This document shows, piece after piece, positions 1,600 to 19,750 of a stretch of 19,887 nt of DNA. The notes under the pieces were generated by a model. The model ran no database searches. It saw only the letters and a program-made list of their open reading frames with translations, and was not told where the DNA came from. Both the position numbers and the translations under genes were made by a program. How positions within the stretch are numbered: the stretch's first letter is position 1; each line of letters opens with the position of its first letter. Source of the DNA: Echinostoma caproni (Eukaryota; Platyhelminthes; Trematoda; Plagiorchiida; Echinostomatidae); NCBI GenBank assembly GCA_900618425.1, contig UZAN01047329.1:1-19887 (forward strand). The letters run 5' to 3'.

Positions 1600-2532
1600 G
1601 ATCATAACCACTCCGTTTTCTGTGAGCAATGAACAAGTTACCCAAACTTTTGCTACGATGTTTTGTTGCCCCTCAGAGGCATTTAACATCCACTCCGATC
1701 GATTCTCTTCCCCACACCTCAAACAACTCCGTTGTAGAAAGGAACGTGCCTTCAAAATGCATGAAGGCAACGAGGTACGCTCTCTTTCCAAATCCATCCG
1801 GGCTGAACTTCAAAGGCTAAACTCCTTTTATACGCCCGTGCTCGGCTTGACAACAAAGGTAGTCGTGAGACCTGGCAAGCCCTCCTGCAAATTTCTGGCA
1901 TCAACTCCTCACAGCGCTCACCTGCTGCGGTGGTCATTGATGGTCTGAACCGGAGTTTCATCAACGAAGGATCCGCTTTCACTGCCCTAACTAATGGATA
2001 TGAAAAAACGTGTCTGATCCTGTTGCCAGCGTTACAGCTGTCTATATTTATCAAGGGTTGGCTCGAATTAATCATTGCAAGTTCTTCGGCTTTGACAGAG
2101 TTTTACCAGGTGTGCTGACATAGGTATAGCCGACTGCTGGAAAATGGCATTTATCACCCCAGTACCGAAGAAAGATCCTCAAAATTTCGTCCCATTACTT
2201 GCATCTCACTTATTTCCAAGGTGTTTGTGAGGCTCCTCATTGAAACCCTGTCCTCACAGTTTAATGTTGGTGAAGCGAACCAGTTTCTTTACACCCATTC
2301 CCGTGGTACCGTGGATGCCCTTGCTTATCTATCCCACTATATTTTATCCAATGTGGATAAGAAAAGTAAGGCTGTCCGCATATGTTTTCTTGACTACAGT
2401 GATGCCTTCAATACAATTGATCGACAAATTTTGCTAAATACCCTGTCTTCGGGCGGAGTTCAATTGTCTACCCACATGTTGAGAATGATTTGGCCGGACT
2501 GGACGGCTTTGGTATTTTCAGGAGTGATCTAA
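1600..2532 (+). pseudogene. LINE copy A linker and reverse transcriptase remnant
   Basis: The linker shows 'SSPHLKQLRCRKERAFK' (about 1710-1760), the basic segment between endonuclease and reverse transcriptase in such LINEs. The reverse transcriptase begins with a 'DCWKMAFITPVPKK' type motif at about 2133-2172 and goes on through the FRPITCISLISKVF motif after a frame change. From 2221 one 103-codon frame carries the first catalytic aspartate motif as FLDYSDAFNTIDRQIL (about 2385-2435). The YxDD motif and thumb are missing. The breaks are single-base indels and stops, consistent with an old copy. Confidence 0.75.
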
Positions 2533-8130: not shown

Positions 8131-9594
8131 CAAACAACAAACCGTTGCTGTAGCGTGGTAACTGGAAGAACTTCTTAACCAAGGGGATGCCCGATCAAAT
8201 CGTTTACACACGTCGAATTGTTTTGTACATAGGTTAATATGATCCACCTCGCACGGGATGAAACAATATTAAATGCTCAACCCAGGAATGTATATGGTCA
8301 GCTGGTGAATATATCAAAAACAGCTTGTTTCGCCTATCAGATTTTATTTTCAATGATCCGATGAACGTTTTCCTTATGCTTATGAGTAGTTGAATAATTA
8401 CAATGAAATCAAAATTCATGAAATCAAACGTCACCGTCCTTTTCAAATCGGATCACACATCATCTTTAGTGTGAAATCATTCTACTAACCAACAGTTTAT
8501 ATCAAAACCCAGTATTTTCATCAAACATTGCTATAACCTGTAGATCATTGTATTCCATTCCCGTTTCCGCATCTAGATTTAGCTCTTGGATGCTGTCGCG
8601 GATGGACATTACTCTTGTTTACATCAATTATCCGATGACCACATTACATGTCATCTTTCTAATGGTTAAATCTCCAATTACTAGACACGTTTATTTACGC
8701 CGCCACCGGACTGATTTGTGCAATTTGCGGAATGAGAGTTGGAGTAAATGCTTCCCTTTCTGAAATACTCTCGGATCCAAAAACTCTGTAACCACATGGT
8801 TGGAGACACTGACGGTTGCGAACCGACAGCAATGGCCATCTTTCGGTTGCTTCTCCTGAGACCGGAATGCATGAAATAGCATGTATGCACGGTTGGACTG
8901 TGTACTCTGTGTTGAACATTGTGTTGACCATCGCTTTGTTTTCCCGTCCCTAAAAATAGGTCCGATTTCTATCCTCCTTACACATTACCACTTACCTCGT
9001 ATGCAATATGAGTTTGGCAGCGATCAGTGAAGTTCGCTTCACTGTATTACGCTCTACATTGATGATGATGGTCATTTGATTACTGCGCCTGATGAGTCAT
9101 GAGTGGTCATCAGCTGCATCGAGTAGTACCTAGTATCACCGCTTAACGGGCTGAGACGTCAAGAATTGCAAAATGATATGTGAATACATGAGAAAGGTAT
9201 AACAGAACAAACGGAATCATCTTGAAAGAACTCGAGATAAAAGGCCAATTATCACAAGCTGGTTTCGAAGAGCTCGTTCGAACTGCATCTCCAACGCCTT
9301 GGTGGAATGGATTCGATCGAAAATGAATTTCTTTGCGAACATTTATTTCCAAATTGTCTAAGGAAATATTGCACGAATTGATATCAGCCTACATCTGGTA
9401 ATTATGTTACTGGTGTGTTATTACGCTTCTGTTTCGTGTTAAAGCTAAGCAGGTTTGATGATTCGATGGTCTTTGGTGAAACTGTAATTCTGGTTTGTAG
9501 TGATCTTAGGTTTGCATAGTAGTGCATCAAACATTTTTCAAAATGCTGTTGCTACCTATTGGATTAGTAAAATTGAAACGTCAACGATTGAATA
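8131..9594. other. Unassigned spacer
   Basis: Short overlapping open frames occur on both strands (for example 8548-8763 plus, 8695-8931 minus), but none shows a motif I know and three minus frames overlap each other, which is typical of chance. A compact hairpin lies at 9025-9044. No tRNA, repeat array or element end was recognised. Confidence 0.4.
9025..9044 (+). other. Perfect 8-bp hairpin with TTCG loop
   Basis: CAGTGAAG pairs with CTTCACTG around TTCG. In RNA this would be a UUCG tetraloop, although closed by G-C rather than the extra-stable C-G. No transcript, terminator U-run or gene end is evident nearby, so the role is unknown. Confidence 0.5.
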
Positions 9595-10830
9595 GCAATT
9601 CATCTCCGGGGAAAGATAATATCTATCGACAAACCCTTATAACTTAACAAGTATTATAGCTTAATTACTGAGTGAACTATTCCAGCATTTGTTCGGCAAA
9701 ACTATATCTCCACAAACATGGAAACAAGGATTAATTTATCCAATAGACAAGGGTGGCTGTCGTAGTGACCGAGCTAACTACTCTCCCGTTACTCACCTCC
9801 CTGTGTTTTCCGAATTCATGGAATCCATTGTTGCAAACAATGTGATGAGTTATTTGGAAGCACACAAGGGATTATCGTCGATACAACATGGGTTTCATCG
9901 CAGGCGGTTTTGTACTGCTAACCTGCTTCTGACCCGAGAGTAGTGGACAAAAGCAGCTGATCACGATGATGTAGTGGACGTAATATACCTCGACTTTTTC
10001 AATGCATTCGACGGAGTGAGCCACAAAATACTGTTGAGAAAATTACACCATTATGGAATTCGGGGATTTGCACTGGGTTGGATGGAACTTTTTCAACAGC
10101 GCAACACGGCAGTGAGACAACTAGCTTAACCCGAGGCGTTCCACGGGGATCCGTGCTTGGCCCTCGACCTTCTCTAGTTTTCATAAACGGTGATGTTTGC
10201 AGACGATGCAAATTATGGAAAATAATGACAAAACTCGAGGACTCGCTGGCACTTCAGAGAACACTTCATGCTGCTTATCAATGGTCGATCAAGAACAACA
10301 TCGAATTCAATGCATCCAAATGTACGGTCGTATCCCTCAGTCACAAAACTCGGTTTCCGTACTTCCTGGGATACGAATAACTTCCATATGTCCCGAGTGC
10401 GAAGGTTCTTCGTGTCATTATTCAAAACGACCTGAGTTATTTTTTAAACTACTCCAGGGCGTCGTCCAACACTGTAAGATACGTTGGTTTCTAAAACGAT
10501 TATTTGACAAATTTGAACCTATGCTGTTTCCACTTTTTTAGTAGCCTTAATTTGACCTCACATAGAGTATGCAATTCAGATGTGGAATCCATCGCTGCAA
10601 CGCAATCGTATGACTCTAAAAACGTCCACAAGGAATGGGCGCCAAAATGGTCAAATGACGGCCCTTCAAGATTTATGTGAAAAGACTGGATCCAATGCGG
10701 ATATACTCCAAAACAGTAACGCCGAAATCGAGGGGACAGGATTTTCGTGAATCAAATAATACGGAACCCCGATCACCCATATCGTTCTTTGTTGGCTTTG
10801 TCACTCCAGGGACATTCATTACAATTAGTT
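9595..10830 (+). pseudogene. LINE copy C reverse transcriptase, multiply frameshifted
   Basis: The first catalytic block reads VIYLDFFNAFDGVSHKIL (about 9978-10032). The second reads RGVPRGSVLGP (about 10130-10162, different frame). FADD is at 10196-10207 (third frame change). NIEFNASKC at about 10297-10323 follows. Stops include a TAG where copy D has an aspartate-rich run after the 'LTRE' segment (about 9941-9943). The aspartates of the polymerase triad are still encoded, but in separate frames. The C-terminal thumb region up to about 10830 is readable only by switching frame several times. Confidence 0.8.
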
Positions 10831-10833
10831 ATC

Positions 10834-11022
10834 CGGACCGTGATGACCCGGTGGTTATGTTACCAACTTATCACCCCGGGAGGTGTTTGAATCCCACCAC
10901 CACCACCTAACACCCCACTGTGTGTTGAATGGTAGCCATTTGATTGGTCGCTTCCTCCTTCCTAAAAATTGTATCTATGTATATGCAGTAAAAGGAAGTA
11001 AAATGAAAAGAAAAGAAAAAAA
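10834..11022 (+). mobile_element. tRNA-derived SINE, copy 2, nested in LINE copy C
   Basis: The head GTGATGACCCGGTGGTTATG aligns with the A-box region of copy 1. A better-preserved B-box, GTTTGAATCCCACC, follows at about 10886-10899, then a CAC-rich middle. The 3' part TTGTATCTATGTATATGC and AGTAAAAGGAAGTAAAATG matches copy 1 and ends in an A-rich tail. It interrupts the LINE between protein segments that are about 14 residues apart in copy D. Flanking target-site duplications are not clear by eye. Confidence 0.75.
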
Positions 11023-11160
11023 GAACCTAGAATTGTCGACTAGAAGGCTGGTATCAATCATTTGTCTTCCGAGTGTGGAGTGTTTGAAAATCTCTACAAC
11101 CTCATCTTGTTCCTGTGTCCACAATCGATTTCTTCAAGAACAAACTGGATGACACGTTGA
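11023..11160 (+). pseudogene. C-terminal end of LINE copy C beyond the SINE
   Basis: The text QSFVFRV...SLQPHLVPVSTIDFFKNKLDDTL corresponds to HHSFAVNRCSKWNSLPPHVV...LVSFKRQLADAL of copy D: the aromatic-rich WNSLP segment followed by the FK..L helix. This is the end of ORF2 in CR1-like LINEs. One stop replaces the tryptophan of the WNSLP segment. Confidence 0.7.
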
Positions 11161-12390
11161 AAGTCCTAAATTTCGACATGCACGAAACAAAAATGATTTG
11201 TGACAATACTTAGCTTTCTACGAACCGTAAATTGATGCATTTGTGCCATAAACCGTATTGAACAATGATATTTCCCATGATACAGCTGTGACTTAGTAGA
11301 AAACATATTCAGTGGATACCATTATTATAGGTTTATTGATAGCGCGGATCACTGAAAAGTCAGTGGTATTCTGCTAAAAATGCGTTCACTGGCAAAACGG
11401 TGCACCAGCGTGATTTTTCGGTATTCGTCGCTGAACTGCATTGTCACACGAGACATTATTTCGAACTGCTTGTGTGAATAAACGGAGCAACCTATAATGG
11501 AATTTATGATCAAAGATTCTTCACAGTCAACCGTGAACATAATTTTACTTTTCTGTTTCTGTTTCACTGAACACGAAGCTTCAGTCAGGCGATTATCTAA
11601 CTTAGGTTTCGTTCCAACACGCCTTCAGTTTGCTACTGTATATTTGATTTGGCTTTTAACCTGTTATCATTGGTGAGCATGCAGCGCTTTTTTGAGCCAA
11701 TATATTTGAAACACATGGCTCTACTTCGTACAATAGTAGACAGTAGTAGTAGCTTGATGAGTCGTCCAATCAACACGCTCAGAATAAACCCAATTCAATA
11801 AGTAAAACCGAAAGGGTAAAAGAAGGTAGGAACAGAGTGAAGTGTATTCAAATGTAGAAAAAATCTGATTGTCAGAATTAATCAAGAGTACAAGATGATA
11901 TCTTGTGATCAAAAAATCTATTTGGTTACAGTCATCACATCCGTCTCACGATAAACGCAAGTTAGGATTTTCGTCATCGGTCTCCCACTTGCCCCGTGGA
12001 TCCTCGAAGTTCGCGCGAATTCTCTTGATCAAAATTAGCAGCTAAAAAATAGACCATTAGTGAGGAAACACTGTAGAGTATTTCAGGAAGATTGAACTAC
12101 ATCGTTCACTCACATGCGGTCAATATGACAATGACGAAAATAGCACATTGGGTTAATTAGTCCTTCTCAAAAGATGTGCACAAGCAAATAAAGATTACCA
12201 AACGATAGAAGTCAAAATTCAATTCTGTGGTAAACGGATTGATTGCGTCAACATCAGTCGGGTACACGGAATCGGGTGATGTAATAGAATGGGGAACGGT
12301 TCATAAATTGCCAAAGATTTGCCACTGTGGTGACACGACAGCAGTTCGATGGGCGATAAAGAGTTAGCTAATTCTATAATTTTACCATTT
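11161..12390. other. Spacer without recognised features
   Basis: Only short open frames occur (11349-11567 and 11721-11912, minus), with no known motif and no repeat seen elsewhere in the window. The right part may be the downstream flank of the minus-strand gene described at 12712-14231. Confidence 0.4.
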
Positions 12391-12524
12391 TTAACTCAAT
12401 TTAGTGATTAAAGTTTTCAAGAGAGAGTAGCAGCCATAGCAAGGCTGTCTGAGTAAAGAGAGATAATGGAAAAATGGGTAGCGGTGTTGGAGCCACTTGT
12501 GATTATTTCGATTAATGGTTGTAC
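12391..12524 (-). other. Candidate terminal exon of the minus-strand gene
   Basis: A polypyrimidine-TTTTAG acceptor on the minus strand ends at about 12525. The frame after it continues about 45 codons to a TAA at 12391-12393 and is in phase with the donor at 12712 (phase 1). The translation has no recognised motif, and a one-in-three phase match is weak support. The alternative is that the protein simply runs on past the donor to the stop at 12654. Confidence 0.2.
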
Positions 12525-12705
12525 AAACTAAAATTGATTTACCAAAACATATTACTCGATTACCGCCGCCCAGTAGTAACAATCACTTCAAAAAAGAAAT
12601 ATGCAGCTGCATTTAAGAGCACTTTGCCAGTTCTCTTCCAATTTCATAATGACTCAACAACGTAAATCAGCCTTATATAAGGACACACAAAATATCAGAA
12701 GTATA

Positions 12706-12716
12706 AAGTTACCTTT
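12706..12716 (-). other. Candidate 5' splice site at the end of the nucleoprotein-like frame
   Basis: The minus strand reads AAAG|GTAACT, close to the eukaryotic consensus AG|GTAAGT, with the intron starting at 12712. The amino-acid character changes here from a charged, helical text to a hydrophobic, low-quality one, as expected of intron read-through. It would make this a spliced transcript, which integrated viral cDNA does not have at first. Confidence 0.4.
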
Positions 12717-13321
12717 CAGTAGATGCTCAGAAATTTCATTATATTTGGCTTCGAATTCGTCAGGACTTGTCTTGATCAGCTCGCGCATCCCATTTACAAC
12801 AATTGCTCTTCTTTCGGCCAAAGCAACTTTCTTGGGATCAGCAAACTGGTGCTGCTCAACGACAGTTTTGCATTGCCCTGATTTCGCTAACCTCGCCTCC
12901 TTATTATAACCACGTAATAATGTGAAGTTCCCGTCTTTATTTGCAATGTAATAAGAATACCTTGCTAAGTTGCTCCTGGGTATGTGTTCAACGACCCAGG
13001 GAATGCAAAGTCCACCTGGTGAATTATTGTCATCGTAATCTGCTCGGGCCTTGCCAGTCAGGGCCAAAGCATCGATATGGTAATTGGTGCGGTTCTTCTG
13101 GACCCTGTTCTTCATCAGTAAAGTTCCAAGCATGATTTTCAGGCTGCTGAAGGGAATGGAGTCGATGCTTGGTGAATTGATCATACACTCAATCACCTGG
13201 CAACACCAACCACGCTTGTGGCACCCGGCTGGCATAAAATCAAATCGCCTTTGGACCTCAGGTGTGATTCGAGGTAGAAGAGTTTGTGGAACAACTCTCC
13301 TGAACGGCTTGCAAATGATGC

Positions 13322-13360
13322 CTGCAACTTCCAGTGCCGCAATGGTGGATGCTCACTGAC
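13322..13360 (-). other. Candidate 39-nt in-phase micro-intron containing the TGA
   Basis: On the minus strand the TGA lies within a segment beginning GTCAGT and ending TTGCAG, 39 nt long and a multiple of three, so removal would keep the frame. Flukes such as schistosomes are known to have many introns of about 30-40 nt. Against this, the donor is not the best consensus, there is no clear polypyrimidine tract, and the encoded residues look like normal protein. Confidence 0.25.
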
Positions 13361-14257
13361 CAATAATGCTGCAAGGTATCACACTGAATGCCACGTTCTT
13401 GCCATTCGGAAACGTCTCCAATATGCGCGTAAGGAACTTGTTAGTGCTGTCCGATTTCACTGCGTGATGAGTCGAATTCCACCATTGAGCTTTAGTGGCC
13501 ATGATGAGAGCTCCCGCCACTTTAAACAAAACTGGGTTTTCCGTTATGACCTTGATATATTTAATAAACACGTTCTGAGAAACACGTTCAGAGGTAAAGC
13601 GCCATTCACCGTCTCTTCTAACCGTGTTTTCATCGCGTACGGTAGCAATAAATCCACAGCTTGCAACAACGTAAGCACCGGCAGCGTACAAATTTAAATA
13701 CTCTTGGTTTGGGACTTGGGTTTCCACGACCTGCATAGTTGCGCCAACTACAGCGAAAGGCTGGAGAAACTTCGGCCACTTGTATATTAACGTTGGGACC
13801 TTTAGTTTGTATTGGTCTGGAACGTTTTCATAAATGTCTTCGAAGAATGAAAGATCGAATGGTCCATTATCGTTGACAAGCGTAAACGATGCACTCTCTA
13901 TATTGCTACCAAATAGCGAATATTGATATGGTCGCTTAGCATTAGTTCCCAAATCAAGGTATTCTGCCATGGCATCCTTTAACTCCATATATTCTTTTGT
14001 ACCGAGGAAACTGGGGTTATTCACATATTTTGCAGATTTACATTCGGCCTCGTTCATATCCACAGATCCTGAATCAGATAGCCTTCTCTTTTTTGATGCT
14101 TCGCTGATCATTTTGGTCTGGTCGTCATTAATGTGAAGCTCAGATTTAACGCTTTGGGTTGATCCAACAGTAGAATTAGATGGTCCGGCTGATAGCCTTG
14201 TTCGCTTACTGCTACTTCGTGTGCTAACCATGGATAAAATGAGAACGGAAATATTCT

Positions 14258-14263
14258 TTTATT
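14258..14263 (-). terminator. AATAAA-type poly(A) signal upstream of the minus-strand start
   Basis: The minus strand reads CCAATAAAAGAATATTT, about 27 bases before the ATG at 14231. In this position it would serve a transcript coming from further right on the minus strand, not the nucleoprotein-like gene. It could equally be a chance AT-rich match. Confidence 0.25.
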
Positions 14264-14669
14264 GGTCATTTACCGGATTCAGTAACGCGAAGCTCAAGAG
14301 CGAAGACATCTTGAGAGCAAATGGAATTTTGTTCAATACATGTAACGTATGTGAATCTCAAATGTGTCAGAAGATATAGGAGTACAAAAACAATTCTTTT
14401 CTCAGGGTAAACGAAAAGAGCTGTTGCCTTTGTATCGTTCTTTAAAATAAAACGAATATATGCACCATATTTGTAGATTTTCATTATCAATTTCTGCCCC
14501 AGGCGAACCGCCTTCGATTGGGACTCGCTGTGCACGTGCTTTCGTCGTTAGTTCCAGCTGCCCTTGTTTGGACAGTGCACGAGGAGCTAGAAGGGACACG
14601 GTAGAACAAACGATTTATTAGGTAATGCAAGAAAAGTCCATAAAATTGTTGGTCAAACTATCGTTCTAG
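14264..14669. other. Region between the nucleoprotein-like gene and the PLE fragment
   Basis: Two overlapping minus frames (14266-14535, 89 codons; 14402-14599, 65 codons) are open. The second contains the clean-looking text APRALSKQGQLELTTKARAQ, which could be an exon or another repeat, but I do not recognise it. A promoter for the gene at 14231 would be expected here; no TATA or initiator motif stands out. Confidence 0.3.
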
Positions 14670-15150
14670 TCAACACATCATGCTATGGTGATGGGCACGA
14701 TTACATTTTCTGGGTTTTACGGTTGTCGGTTGCTTCATCATTTCTGCTAACCACCTCGGGATGTGCTCGGTTACCCGTTCTGATAGCCGACGGCTTGTTG
14801 TACCAATGTATGTCCCAGCGCAACGGAATGTGAACTGGTACACAGTGTGAGACAGAACCGGTTTGCCAATTGTGGTTCTCTTTCACATCGTTTCGACGAG
14901 TATAGGCCGTGAGTCTGAGCTGAGCAACTTTTGTTGTACACCATTGCCTTAGAAAGCCAGTTTATTTTTGACGACTTGAACGACTAACATTGGATTATTT
15001 TTTCGAAATGATCCGCCTTTTGCAATTCAAATTATCCCAAAATCATTTCAAGGAGTCTGAGCATCATTTCGAGCTGTCTCGTTGATCTCATCGGCGCTGG
15101 CAAGCCTTCCAGCGATTTTTGAATGATCACCATGTAATCTTATAATTCCA
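14670..15150 (-). pseudogene. Penelope-like element fragment with GIY-YIG endonuclease
   Basis: On the minus strand, from 14843 down to a stop at 14670-14672, one frame reads VYQFTFRCAGTYIGTTSRRL then SERVTEHIPRWLAEMM. This is the GIY-YIG fold as found at the C-terminus of Penelope-like elements: VYxF as the first motif, YIG at 14802-14810, the R-x-x-x-R arginine region and the conserved EH. Upstream, through shifted frames, DEINETARNDAQ (about 15040-15075) and KLLSSDSRPILVE (about 14890-14930) fit the segment before the nuclease. At least two frameshifts separate these. The reverse transcriptase is not preserved. Confidence 0.75.
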
Positions 15151-15974
15151 CAAGGCGGTGCTCGATCGAGAACAGTTGCTTATTGCCAATAACGGTCAGT
15201 TAGTGGTTAAATTGTCAATACAGAATTCCTGCACACAAACATGGGATAGTTGATAAAACAGTTCAATATCAGATGCGCACTCTTGTATTCACCATGCCGA
15301 ACAGCAACAGTATGATCCAACTGGTCTTGTTCATTTTTGGTCGTTGGAAGAAACCGCTGATCGCATCTTTTAGCGTATCACTCATAAGTGAGTAGTATCT
15401 CACATTAGTAAGGATTTCTCTACCTCCCGCTGAAGCGCGGTGGGGGTGGGGGACGATTGTGAGACGTGCCTCTGTCACACGCACACCCCAACTCTCATGG
15501 TTGTTTATCTTGCTAGTACGCGTACGCGTCTATGTGTGTGTTTCTGCTCCTCCGCTGATGCCAGTGAATCATGCGCGATCAACACCTGAGCAATTGCTTA
15601 CCTCCGTAGCATGATGCTGCAATGGAATTCACAAGCTACAACCCAAGCGGTCGCACCTGGGACAACAATCGATCACGCTCGATCGATATGCGCATCAGTG
15701 TTGACCAGGTTCACATCCAGTTTGTTCCAGACTTGTCAAAACAACCCCAGCTGTACGGGCATAGGTTATTTCACCCTTTGTTAACCAATTTAAGATTTAC
15801 ATCAATTGGTACTGTGCCTCCATTGTTTCCGTTTGGAAGACTGTAAGAACCGTGAAATACCCCGTTGTGGTTCAGCTATGATAACCGAAAGGTGTTCTGA
15901 TCTCATAATACTTACGAAGTTAGTAAACACTTTTACAGTTTCTGACAGACATTATCTTTTCTGCCGAAAGGATA
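15151..15974. other. Unassigned region with one open minus frame
   Basis: The minus frame 15269-15484 (71 codons) contains RVTEARLTIVPHPHRASAGG and a hydrophobic WIILLLFGMVN segment near its end; no family is recognised. A G-rich block (GGTGGGGGTGGGGG) lies at about 15440-15453 and a GTACGCGTACGCGT alternating stretch at about 15515-15530. The plus frame 15622-15846 shows nothing known. Confidence 0.3.
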
Positions 15975-16121
15975 AAGACAAAGCTCCTGGTTTTAAAGAA
16001 GTACTCATCATCGGGTCTAGATTATATACATCCACAAGCCTATCACTGTGGCAAGTCACATAGCCGATGCTTTAAGTGGGTCATACCAAAAGCTGTTTGA
16101 AGATACCGTGCTTCCTCAGAT

Positions 16122-16865
16122 GTGGAAAAACTAATTTACAAAGGTGGATGCCGTAGTGACCCAGCCAACTACCGACCCGTCACTCTCCTTCCAATGTTGT
16201 CCAAAGTCATAGAATCTATTATTTCAGATTCTGTAATGGATCACCTAGAGAAAAATGACTTACTATCCCCAGCCCAGCACGGGTTTCGAAAAAATCGTTC
16301 ATGTGCAACCAACTTGATTTTGGCCCGGGACGATTGGACTCATGCTGTAGACCAAGGCAGAGGAGTAGTTGTTATTTACCTGGACTTCTCTAAAGCATTT
16401 GATGGGGTAAATCATCAAATACTGATACGGAAGCTGTATAATTATGGAACCCGTGGACTCGTACTTGGCTGGATCGAGGAGTTTCTTCGCCTTCGCACCA
16501 TGTCAGTTCGTGTTTCCGATTCACTGTCTGATCCAATAGGTGTCAACCGTGGGGTTCCACAGGGATCTGTGCTAGACCCACGTCTTTTCCCTGCCTTTAT
16601 AAATGATCTTCCAGACGTTCTCGGACCACAAAATCTACTGTTCGTGGACGATGCCAAAATATGGAGGACAATAACAAAACCAGAAGATTCATTTGATCTC
16701 CAGAACGCCCTTGAAGAAGCCCACAGATGGTCTGTTTCCAATGATATGGAATTCAACTTTACCAAAATCTTAAAGTCTTATCACTACGTCACAATGATCG
16801 TTTTTCCTACACTCTCGGACACGAAACTTTGCCTCATGCTCCATCCGACAAGGATCTGGGAGTAG
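16122..16865 (+). pseudogene. LINE copy D reverse transcriptase core
   Basis: One 247-codon frame holds nearly the whole polymerase: KGGCRSDPANYRPVTLLP (template grip), QHGFRKNRSCATNLI, motif A YLDFSKAFDGVNHQIL (about 16377-16424), motif B NRGVPQGSVLDP (about 16544-16580) and the catalytic FVDD at 16641-16652, where FADD or YADD is usual. NDMEFNFTK follows at about 16740. All three catalytic aspartates are present in one frame. A frameshift before 16122 cuts it from its N-terminal part, and another at about 16840 from the thumb, so the protein is unlikely to be active. Confidence 0.85.
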
Positions 16866-17570: not shown

Positions 17571-18480
17571 AAGCGAAGTCTTCGTAAGTTTTCTCCCATA
17601 ATGAAAATTAGATTTTGAAGTTTGGTTTGTGGTGGCTTCAGCAATCAATCTTAAGAACAACCACGGTGGTATTCCCACCGTGAACCGGAATCGAGAAATG
17701 AGGCAATGGCAATACGATTGCACGAAGCCAGTTTGCACTTACTAGTTGTGAATGTCATATGCTAACTTTAATTCACTCGGTTTACTTTGTGTGTTGAAAG
17801 TGTTAAAAAAGACTATATGATTTCAGCGATAAAGATTATCGAATTCAGAGCCCATACTCGGAAAAGTGCAATTTATGAACTCGTATTTTCCTATGAAATA
17901 TCGTAACTGTTATAAAATTTATGGTGTATTTCGACAGCCCTCGTTAAGCCATTGCTATTGTAGTTGGTTTGATAGAGATGTCTCATCCCGTTCCGGAGAT
18001 ATGCCCAAAATTGTAAATTTGATTGTTTAGTACTTGAAGAGGATTGTTCCGTGGTGGTGTCGCAGAGATACGGTCGAGGTCGACGACACCTAGTGTGTGG
18101 ATATTCAAAATGTACGACTCTCCGTTCTGAGTACCATCAAAAGACGATTTAAAACGTTACCGTGTCAGTGGGTGATGTAATATGAGAACATTTGTATGAG
18201 TTACAGTACCGCATGTGGTTCAATTTTTCCGTACAAACGTTTAAGAATGACACGGACACCTACTTACGACACGTCGTGCAGTTGTATTTCTGTCGAACGA
18301 CATTTACGATTTATTAGAATATTTTCCCCATTATTACTTGCATCTTTTTAGGTGTGTACAGTGAGTGGTACATTTATACTCCCTATTTTTACGAAAATTG
18401 CCGCTGGGGAGGGGGGATGCCGAAATTTGTCTCCCTTTAAAATCTCGTCTGGTTAGCGAAAGATAACCATTTTCGCACTG
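17571..18480. other. Unassigned spacer
   Basis: No convincing gene is seen. A perfect 8-bp hairpin, CACGGTGG (17662-17669) with CCACCGTG (17675-17682) around a 5-base loop, is the only structured element noticed. The short minus frame 18334-18522 overlaps the left inverted-repeat arm and is treated with it. A G-rich run, GGGGAGGGGGG, lies at about 18407-18417. Confidence 0.4.
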
Positions 18481-18547
18481 ACAAGCCTGTGCGAGTGTTT
18501 GAACGGTAATCGCAACAGTCATTCTTAGAGCACTGACGAAATTAGAC
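18481..18547 (+). repeat. Left arm of a diverged inverted repeat
   Basis: These 67 bases, from ACAAGCC to GAAATTAGAC, match the reverse complement of 19266-19332 with 9 mismatches and no gap by my count. A weaker match may extend outwards to about 18465. Read on the minus strand the arms could encode a peptide, but 8 of the 9 differences change the amino acid, so there is no sign of protein conservation; the DNA itself is the repeat. Confidence 0.75.
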
Positions 18548-19233: not shown

Positions 19234-19241
19234 AACTGGTT

Positions 19242-19332
19242 ACGATTACCTTTGGACAGTGATCTGTCTAATTTCGTCAATGCTTTAAGAATTACTGTTG
19301 GGATTAGCATTCAACCATTCGCACTGGCTTGT
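19242..19332 (-). repeat. Right arm of the inverted repeat
   Basis: The outer 67 bases (19266-19332) pair with 18481-18547. The inner part (19242-19281, ACGATTACC...TTCGTCA) matches a third copy at 19712-19750 in opposite orientation. The arm is thus a longer unit of which the other two copies keep different portions. The spacing from the left arm gives an outer length of about 850 bp. Confidence 0.7.
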
Positions 19333-19711
19333 AGGTGCCAATGATTCCGAAAAAACAGATAATGCCTGTGTTGCCGTGCATGCGCATGGATACCATGAAC
19401 AATACAGTAAGGGGTGTGTGAGAGTTCAAATCATTCTGTAATTCATTGTGCATTCGAGAACACCACCGCAGTTAGCCTCGTCGCGGATTGACGAGAACCG
19501 GGGGTTCGCCAATTACGGCTCATTTGATGGAATCCGAACATCATGTCAGAATGACAGGGTCAGTCAGGCCCATCTACACGATCATCGGGGTGAGATCGAA
19601 GCAGGTCAAGTATCGCTTACTGTCTCCACAGTCGAAGTGATCACGATTCCGTTGAACCATCCCCTCCTTGTTCGTTAAAAAAAACAGTCAGTCAGAGATC
19701 TGGATTTGCCA
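19333..19711. other. Spacer to the third repeat copy
   Basis: Apart from the direct repeat at 19404 nothing is recognised. The plus frame 19448-19678 has no known motif and no helpful context. Confidence 0.35.
19404..19423 (+). repeat. Direct repeat unit 2 (ACAGTAAGGGGTG)
   Basis: This is the second copy of the motif at 19214-19233, with two mismatches in 20 bases. The flanking sequences outside the 20 bases do not match. Confidence 0.55.
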
Positions 19712-19750
19712 TGACGAAATTAGACAGGTCACTGAACAAAAGTAATCGTA
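19712..19750 (+). repeat. Third, partial copy of the inverted-repeat family
   Basis: TGACGAAATTAGACAGGTCA and the following TG..CAAAAGTAATCGTA match the reverse complement of 19242-19281 with a few mismatches. The first 14 bases also match 18534-18547 in the same orientation. Beyond it to the window end nothing further is recognised. Confidence 0.6.

What the first reader, a model, noticed from the sequence alone, without database searches (positions are those of the whole stretch)
12654..14231. Well-preserved nucleoprotein-like gene, possibly an endogenous chuvirus-like element, in a flatworm genome
A frame of about 525 codons with one stop stands among retroelements that are broken every 50-150 codons. 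It has no transposon motif, two basic clusters near the N-terminus and a helical core whose landmarks (WRFTSERV, the QWW...HH segment, PAGCHKRGW, GGLCIPWVV) recall nucleoproteins of negative-strand RNA viruses, best guess Jingchuvirales. Seen: frame, motifs, single stop. Known: nucleoprotein genes of such viruses are found integrated in invertebrate genomes. Inferred: viral origin and possible retention for a host role such as antiviral interference.
Basis: partly seen in the sequence, partly recalled or inferred. Interest (0 to 1): 0.9.

Follow-up and report, generated by a model that had tools for sequence, protein, structure and literature searches.

The report
Unidentified long gene relic
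A long, nearly intact protein-coding stretch with one premature stop really is there, but it matched nothing I could search, so the idea that it is a captured viral nucleoprotein remains an untested guess.

Summary
The frame is real. On the minus strand 534 codons (14258-12657) hold one stop (TGA, 13353-13355); from ATG 14231 it reads 292 codons, stop, 232 codons. None of 300 simulated windows reached this, and its three-base periodicity is the highest in a scan of the window. The contrast with neighbours is overstated: a reverse-transcriptase piece at 16101-16865 is open for 254 codons.

Searched apart, both parts gave no match in Pfam, NCBIfam, PHROGs, a 5.8-billion protein set or IMG/VR, and nothing significant among PDB sequences; part 1 alone gave nothing in GTDB contigs or phages. 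Single-sequence models were mostly unusable (mean pLDDT 35 and 43). The window's genome could not be searched (8 of 8 requests unanswered), and no jingchuviral nucleoprotein was at hand to compare, so 'chuvirus-like' has no test behind it.

Best estimate: a recent endogenous nucleoprotein-like relic of a negative-strand RNA virus (0.4), against a host orphan gene or pseudogene (0.33) or a transposon-borne ORF (0.22). No result shows a retained function.

The parts
13356..14231 (-). Part 1: open part from the first ATG, 292 codons, with two basic clusters (KRTR at residue 9, KKRR at residue 47)
   Evidence: periodicity
13353..13355 (-). single in-frame TGA stop
12657..13352 (-). Part 2: second open part, 232 codons, same frame
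   Evidence: periodicity (to 12713)
12709..12715 (-). splice-donor-like heptamer (MAG|GTAA), 19 codons from the end of part 2; one of 4 on this strand of the window; function not tested
   Evidence: sequence
16101..16865 (+). not part of the candidate: reverse-transcriptase piece of a LINE-like element, open for 254 codons, used as comparison for preservation
   Evidence: RVT_1 E 8.9e-26

Best explanation
Most likely an endogenous relic of a nucleoprotein-like gene of a negative-strand RNA virus. Inferred steps: one viral mRNA was reverse-transcribed by a retrotransposon enzyme of the host, inserted recently, and has since gained one stop codon. In the virus the protein would coat genomic RNA; in the host it is probably decaying. 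Shown: a long coding frame with one stop, N-terminal basic clusters, no recognised domain, LINE reverse-transcriptase pieces in the same window. Inferred: viral origin, insertion route, lack of function. The viral order is not identified.
For: Long lone frame with a real coding signal. No zinc knuckle or reverse-transcriptase pattern and no Pfam domain in either part. LINE reverse-transcriptase pieces in the window. KRTR and KKRR clusters near the N-terminus. A size of about 500 codons suits a nucleoprotein (recalled). Jingchuviruses, rhabdoviruses and nyamiviruses occur in parasitic flatworms (PMC9241645, passages). Endogenous copies of nucleoprotein, glycoprotein and RdRp genes, most with disrupted frames and many within transposons, are reported from more than 40 arthropod species (PMC4384744, passages). 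All of this is circumstantial.
Against: No similarity to a viral protein in any search run, and no Pfam family even at E 10. On the coding strand no run of 7 or more A was found at 9000-16000, and the best exact repeat between the flanks was 10 bases, so no hallmark of LINE-mediated insertion was seen; the ends of the insert are unknown. A splice-donor-like site near the 3' end may point to a host gene, though splice variants are also reported for endogenous bornavirus-like nucleoproteins (PMC4982594, abstract start). The fold evidence is unusable.
Confidence: 0.4

Rival explanations
1. A lineage-specific host gene, or its recent pseudogene, without a described family. It may have an intron beginning at 12712; the stop is a recent loss, an allele or an assembly error.
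For: Real coding signal; no family match; a splice-donor-like heptamer, one of 4 on this strand of the window, lies 19 codons from the end of part 2, and one pyrimidine-rich acceptor-like site was found downstream at 12449 in a scan of 11500-12713. Zero frameshifts are easier to explain with past constraint.
Against: It lies among retroelement pieces; no further exon was identified; splice-like sites also occur by chance; the internal stop would truncate the product.
Confidence: 0.33
2. An ORF carried by a transposable element without recognised domains, such as a divergent ORF1 or gag-like protein.
For: Reverse-transcriptase pieces in the window; basic N-terminal clusters.
Against: No zinc knuckle; no Pfam match; no second copy in the window (other tblastn matches E 4.4 or worse); no direct repeat of 14 bases or more at 11000-16000.
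Confidence: 0.22
3. A chance open frame without coding history.
For: None found.
Against: 0 of 300 simulations reach it; highest periodicity in the window scan.
Confidence: 0.02

Closest known systems
[quoted passage not shown]
   Same: Nucleoprotein-derived frames in animal genomes, most defective, some kept open, with splice variants in some (PMC4982594 and PMC3166317, abstract starts in the listing)
   Different: No sequence similarity shown. No Pfam family matched; that Pfam holds a bornavirus nucleoprotein model is recalled. No evidence of selection or expression here
Jingchuvirales nucleoproteins and their endogenous copies
   Same: Such viruses are reported from parasitic flatworms (PMC9241645, passages); genomes of the order encode a glycoprotein, a nucleoprotein, a polymerase and/or unknown proteins (PMC10770922, whole text)
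   Different: No similarity shown. The tapeworm jingchuvirus SsJV1 is described with a single protein, similar to L (PMC7305300, passages), so I had no flatworm jingchuviral nucleoprotein to compare

Membership tests
Jingchuvirales nucleoprotein (endogenous) | Sequence similarity to jingchuviral nucleoproteins | not testable with these tools
   No jingchuviral nucleoprotein was at hand; Pfam, IMG/VR and the protein set gave no match
Jingchuvirales nucleoprotein (endogenous) | Fold of negative-strand virus nucleoproteins | tested here: inconclusive
   Mean pLDDT 35.4 and 43.1; BFVD matches with E <= 0.001: 0 for each model; PDB second looks
Endogenous non-retroviral viral element | Detectable homology to a virus | tested here: inconclusive
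   No match, but coverage of animal viruses is limited or unknown
Endogenous non-retroviral viral element | Signs of retrotransposon-mediated insertion (poly(A), target-site duplication); not obligatory | tested here: inconclusive
   None seen: no run of 7 or more A on the coding strand at 9000-16000; best exact flank repeat 10 bases. The ends of the insert are unknown
LINE ORF1 or gag-like protein | CCHC zinc knuckle or a known ORF1 domain | tested here: not met
LINE ORF1 or gag-like protein | Dispersed copies in the genome | tested here: inconclusive

The most novel reading that the evidence does not exclude
A fossil nucleoprotein of a flatworm jingchuvirus or related lineage whose nucleoprotein is undescribed, taken over as a spliced host gene and lost only recently, or still whole in some individuals.
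Probability: 0.08. Interest if true: 0.75.

Novelty: new member of a known kind. Interest (0 to 1): 0.3.

Why it matters
It could help to find the nucleoprotein of flatworm jingchuviruses, one of which is described with one protein only (PMC7305300, passages). If it is an orphan host gene or a transposon ORF, it is ordinary.

Tried and rejected
Families: Pfam (E up to 1 and up to 10), NCBIfam and PHROGs (up to 1) gave 0 families for 2 of 2 parts. PDB sequences: 8 weak matches for each part, best E 0.12 (part 1, spike glycoprotein chains, residues 113-148) and 0.014 (part 2, bacterial PriB, residues 7-54); rejected as insignificant. Protein set: 438, 497 and 131 candidates, none within E 1, 1 and 10; the third scored residues 120-301 of the 301-codon frame only. 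tblastn of part 1 on phages: one match at E 0.9, rejected. IMG/VR: 2 (part 1) and 10 (part 2) stretches matched a peptide pattern, none confirmed. GTDB contigs, part 1 only: 16 stretches, none confirmed. These scans use six short exact peptides and reach close relatives only.

Rfam: no match at gathering threshold. Decay: 4.5% of possible substitutions (3.5% weighted) create a stop in 1515 bases. At most one stop has probability 0.90 at 1%, 0.26 at 5% and 0.03 at 10% neutral divergence; no indel has 0.22 at 1%, 0.05 at 2% and 0.0005 at 5% (assumes a transition:transversion ratio of 4, 0.1 indel per substitution and an intact start). Neutral decay therefore fits only if the insertion is young, about 1-2% divergence; otherwise some past constraint is needed. 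A splice at the TGA region was considered by eye and dropped because it would shift the frame.

Full report
Observation. On the minus strand a frame runs from 14258 to 12657 with one stop at 13353-13355. From ATG 14231 it gives 292 codons, a stop, then 232 codons. In 300 first-order Markov sequences of the window's length, the longest open run was 284 codons and the longest with one stop 318, against 301 and 534 observed. Base composition differs by codon position: chi-square 31.3 in part 1 (0 of 2000 simulations as high) and 17.3 in part 2 up to 12713 (14 of 2000). RNY codons are most frequent in the open frame (0.34 and 0.33, against 0.19-0.26 in the other two frames of that strand); this measure does not tell the strand. 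Of 191 sliding windows the nine highest all start at 12701-13501. The stretch has coding history.

Contrast with neighbours. Of eight other frames sent to Pfam, two hold reverse transcriptase above the cut-off, 2119-2532 (E 1.1e-10) and 16101-16865 (E 8.9e-26), and a third, 9970-10380, a sub-threshold match. The piece at 16101-16865 is open for 254 codons; with adjoining pieces, if they are one element, it shows about two stops and one frame change in 1.6 kb. The candidate is better preserved, but not in a class of its own.

Identity. The two parts were searched apart. Pfam, NCBIfam and PHROGs gave 0 families for 2 of 2 parts. Three searches of the 5.8-billion protein set gave nothing. That tool restricts candidates by length (part 1 about 161-511 aa, up to 526 aa; part 2 about 128-406 aa), so longer full-length relatives were out of reach, for part 2 above all. 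PDB sequences gave nothing significant. IMG/VR gave no confirmed relative for either part. GTDB contigs gave none for part 1, and phage records gave one match at E 0.9 for part 1; part 2 was not sent to these two. The silence is weak evidence, because the DNA sets are prokaryotic or viral-metagenomic and the scans reach close relatives only. The window's own genome could not be searched in 8 of 8 attempts.

Anatomy. Part 1 has KRTR at residue 9 and KKRR at residue 47; CCHC and [YF]xDD patterns were absent from both parts. A splice-donor-like heptamer, one of 4 on this strand in 19.9 kb, lies 19 codons from the end of part 2, and an acceptor-like site lies at 12449. This suggests a transcribed, spliced gene but may be chance. 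On the coding strand no run of 7 or more A was found at 9000-16000 and no convincing target-site duplication (best exact repeat 10 bases). No second copy lies in the window.

Age and function. If it was intact at insertion and has drifted neutrally, at most one stop is likely up to a few per cent divergence (P 0.90 at 1%, 0.26 at 5%, 0.03 at 10%). The lack of any frameshift is stricter: P of no indel is 0.22 at 1%, 0.05 at 2% and 0.0005 at 5%, with an assumed rate of 0.1 indel per substitution. A young neutral relic explains the data; an old one would need past constraint. With a stop after 292 codons a full-length product is not expected from this allele.

Literature. Jingchuvirales genomes encode a glycoprotein, a nucleoprotein, a polymerase and/or unknown proteins (PMC10770922, whole text). 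[quoted passage not shown] The tapeworm virus SsJV1 is described with one protein (PMC7305300, passages). [quoted passage not shown] Passages of PMC10084718 and PMC11097642 were also seen. I saw no report of an endogenous nucleoprotein in a flatworm in the listings; most subscription papers are not held.

Conclusion. The frame is real. I give 0.4 to an endogenous nucleoprotein-like relic of some negative-strand virus, 0.33 to a host orphan gene or pseudogene, and 0.22 to a transposon-borne ORF; these odds are judgement, not computed. No result here supports the order Jingchuvirales or a host role.

Noticed in passing
window 14673-14882, minus strand: A short frame resembles by eye (recalled) the GIY-YIG nuclease end of Penelope-like elements; Pfam gave no match at E 1.
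   Followed up: partly
window 18472-18547 and 19266-19341: A 76-base inverted repeat pair at 84% identity, and a 39-base inverted pair at 19241-19279 and 19712-19750 at 90%.
   Followed up: no
window 2119-2532 and 16101-16865, plus strand: Reverse-transcriptase pieces of LINE-like elements.
   Followed up: partly
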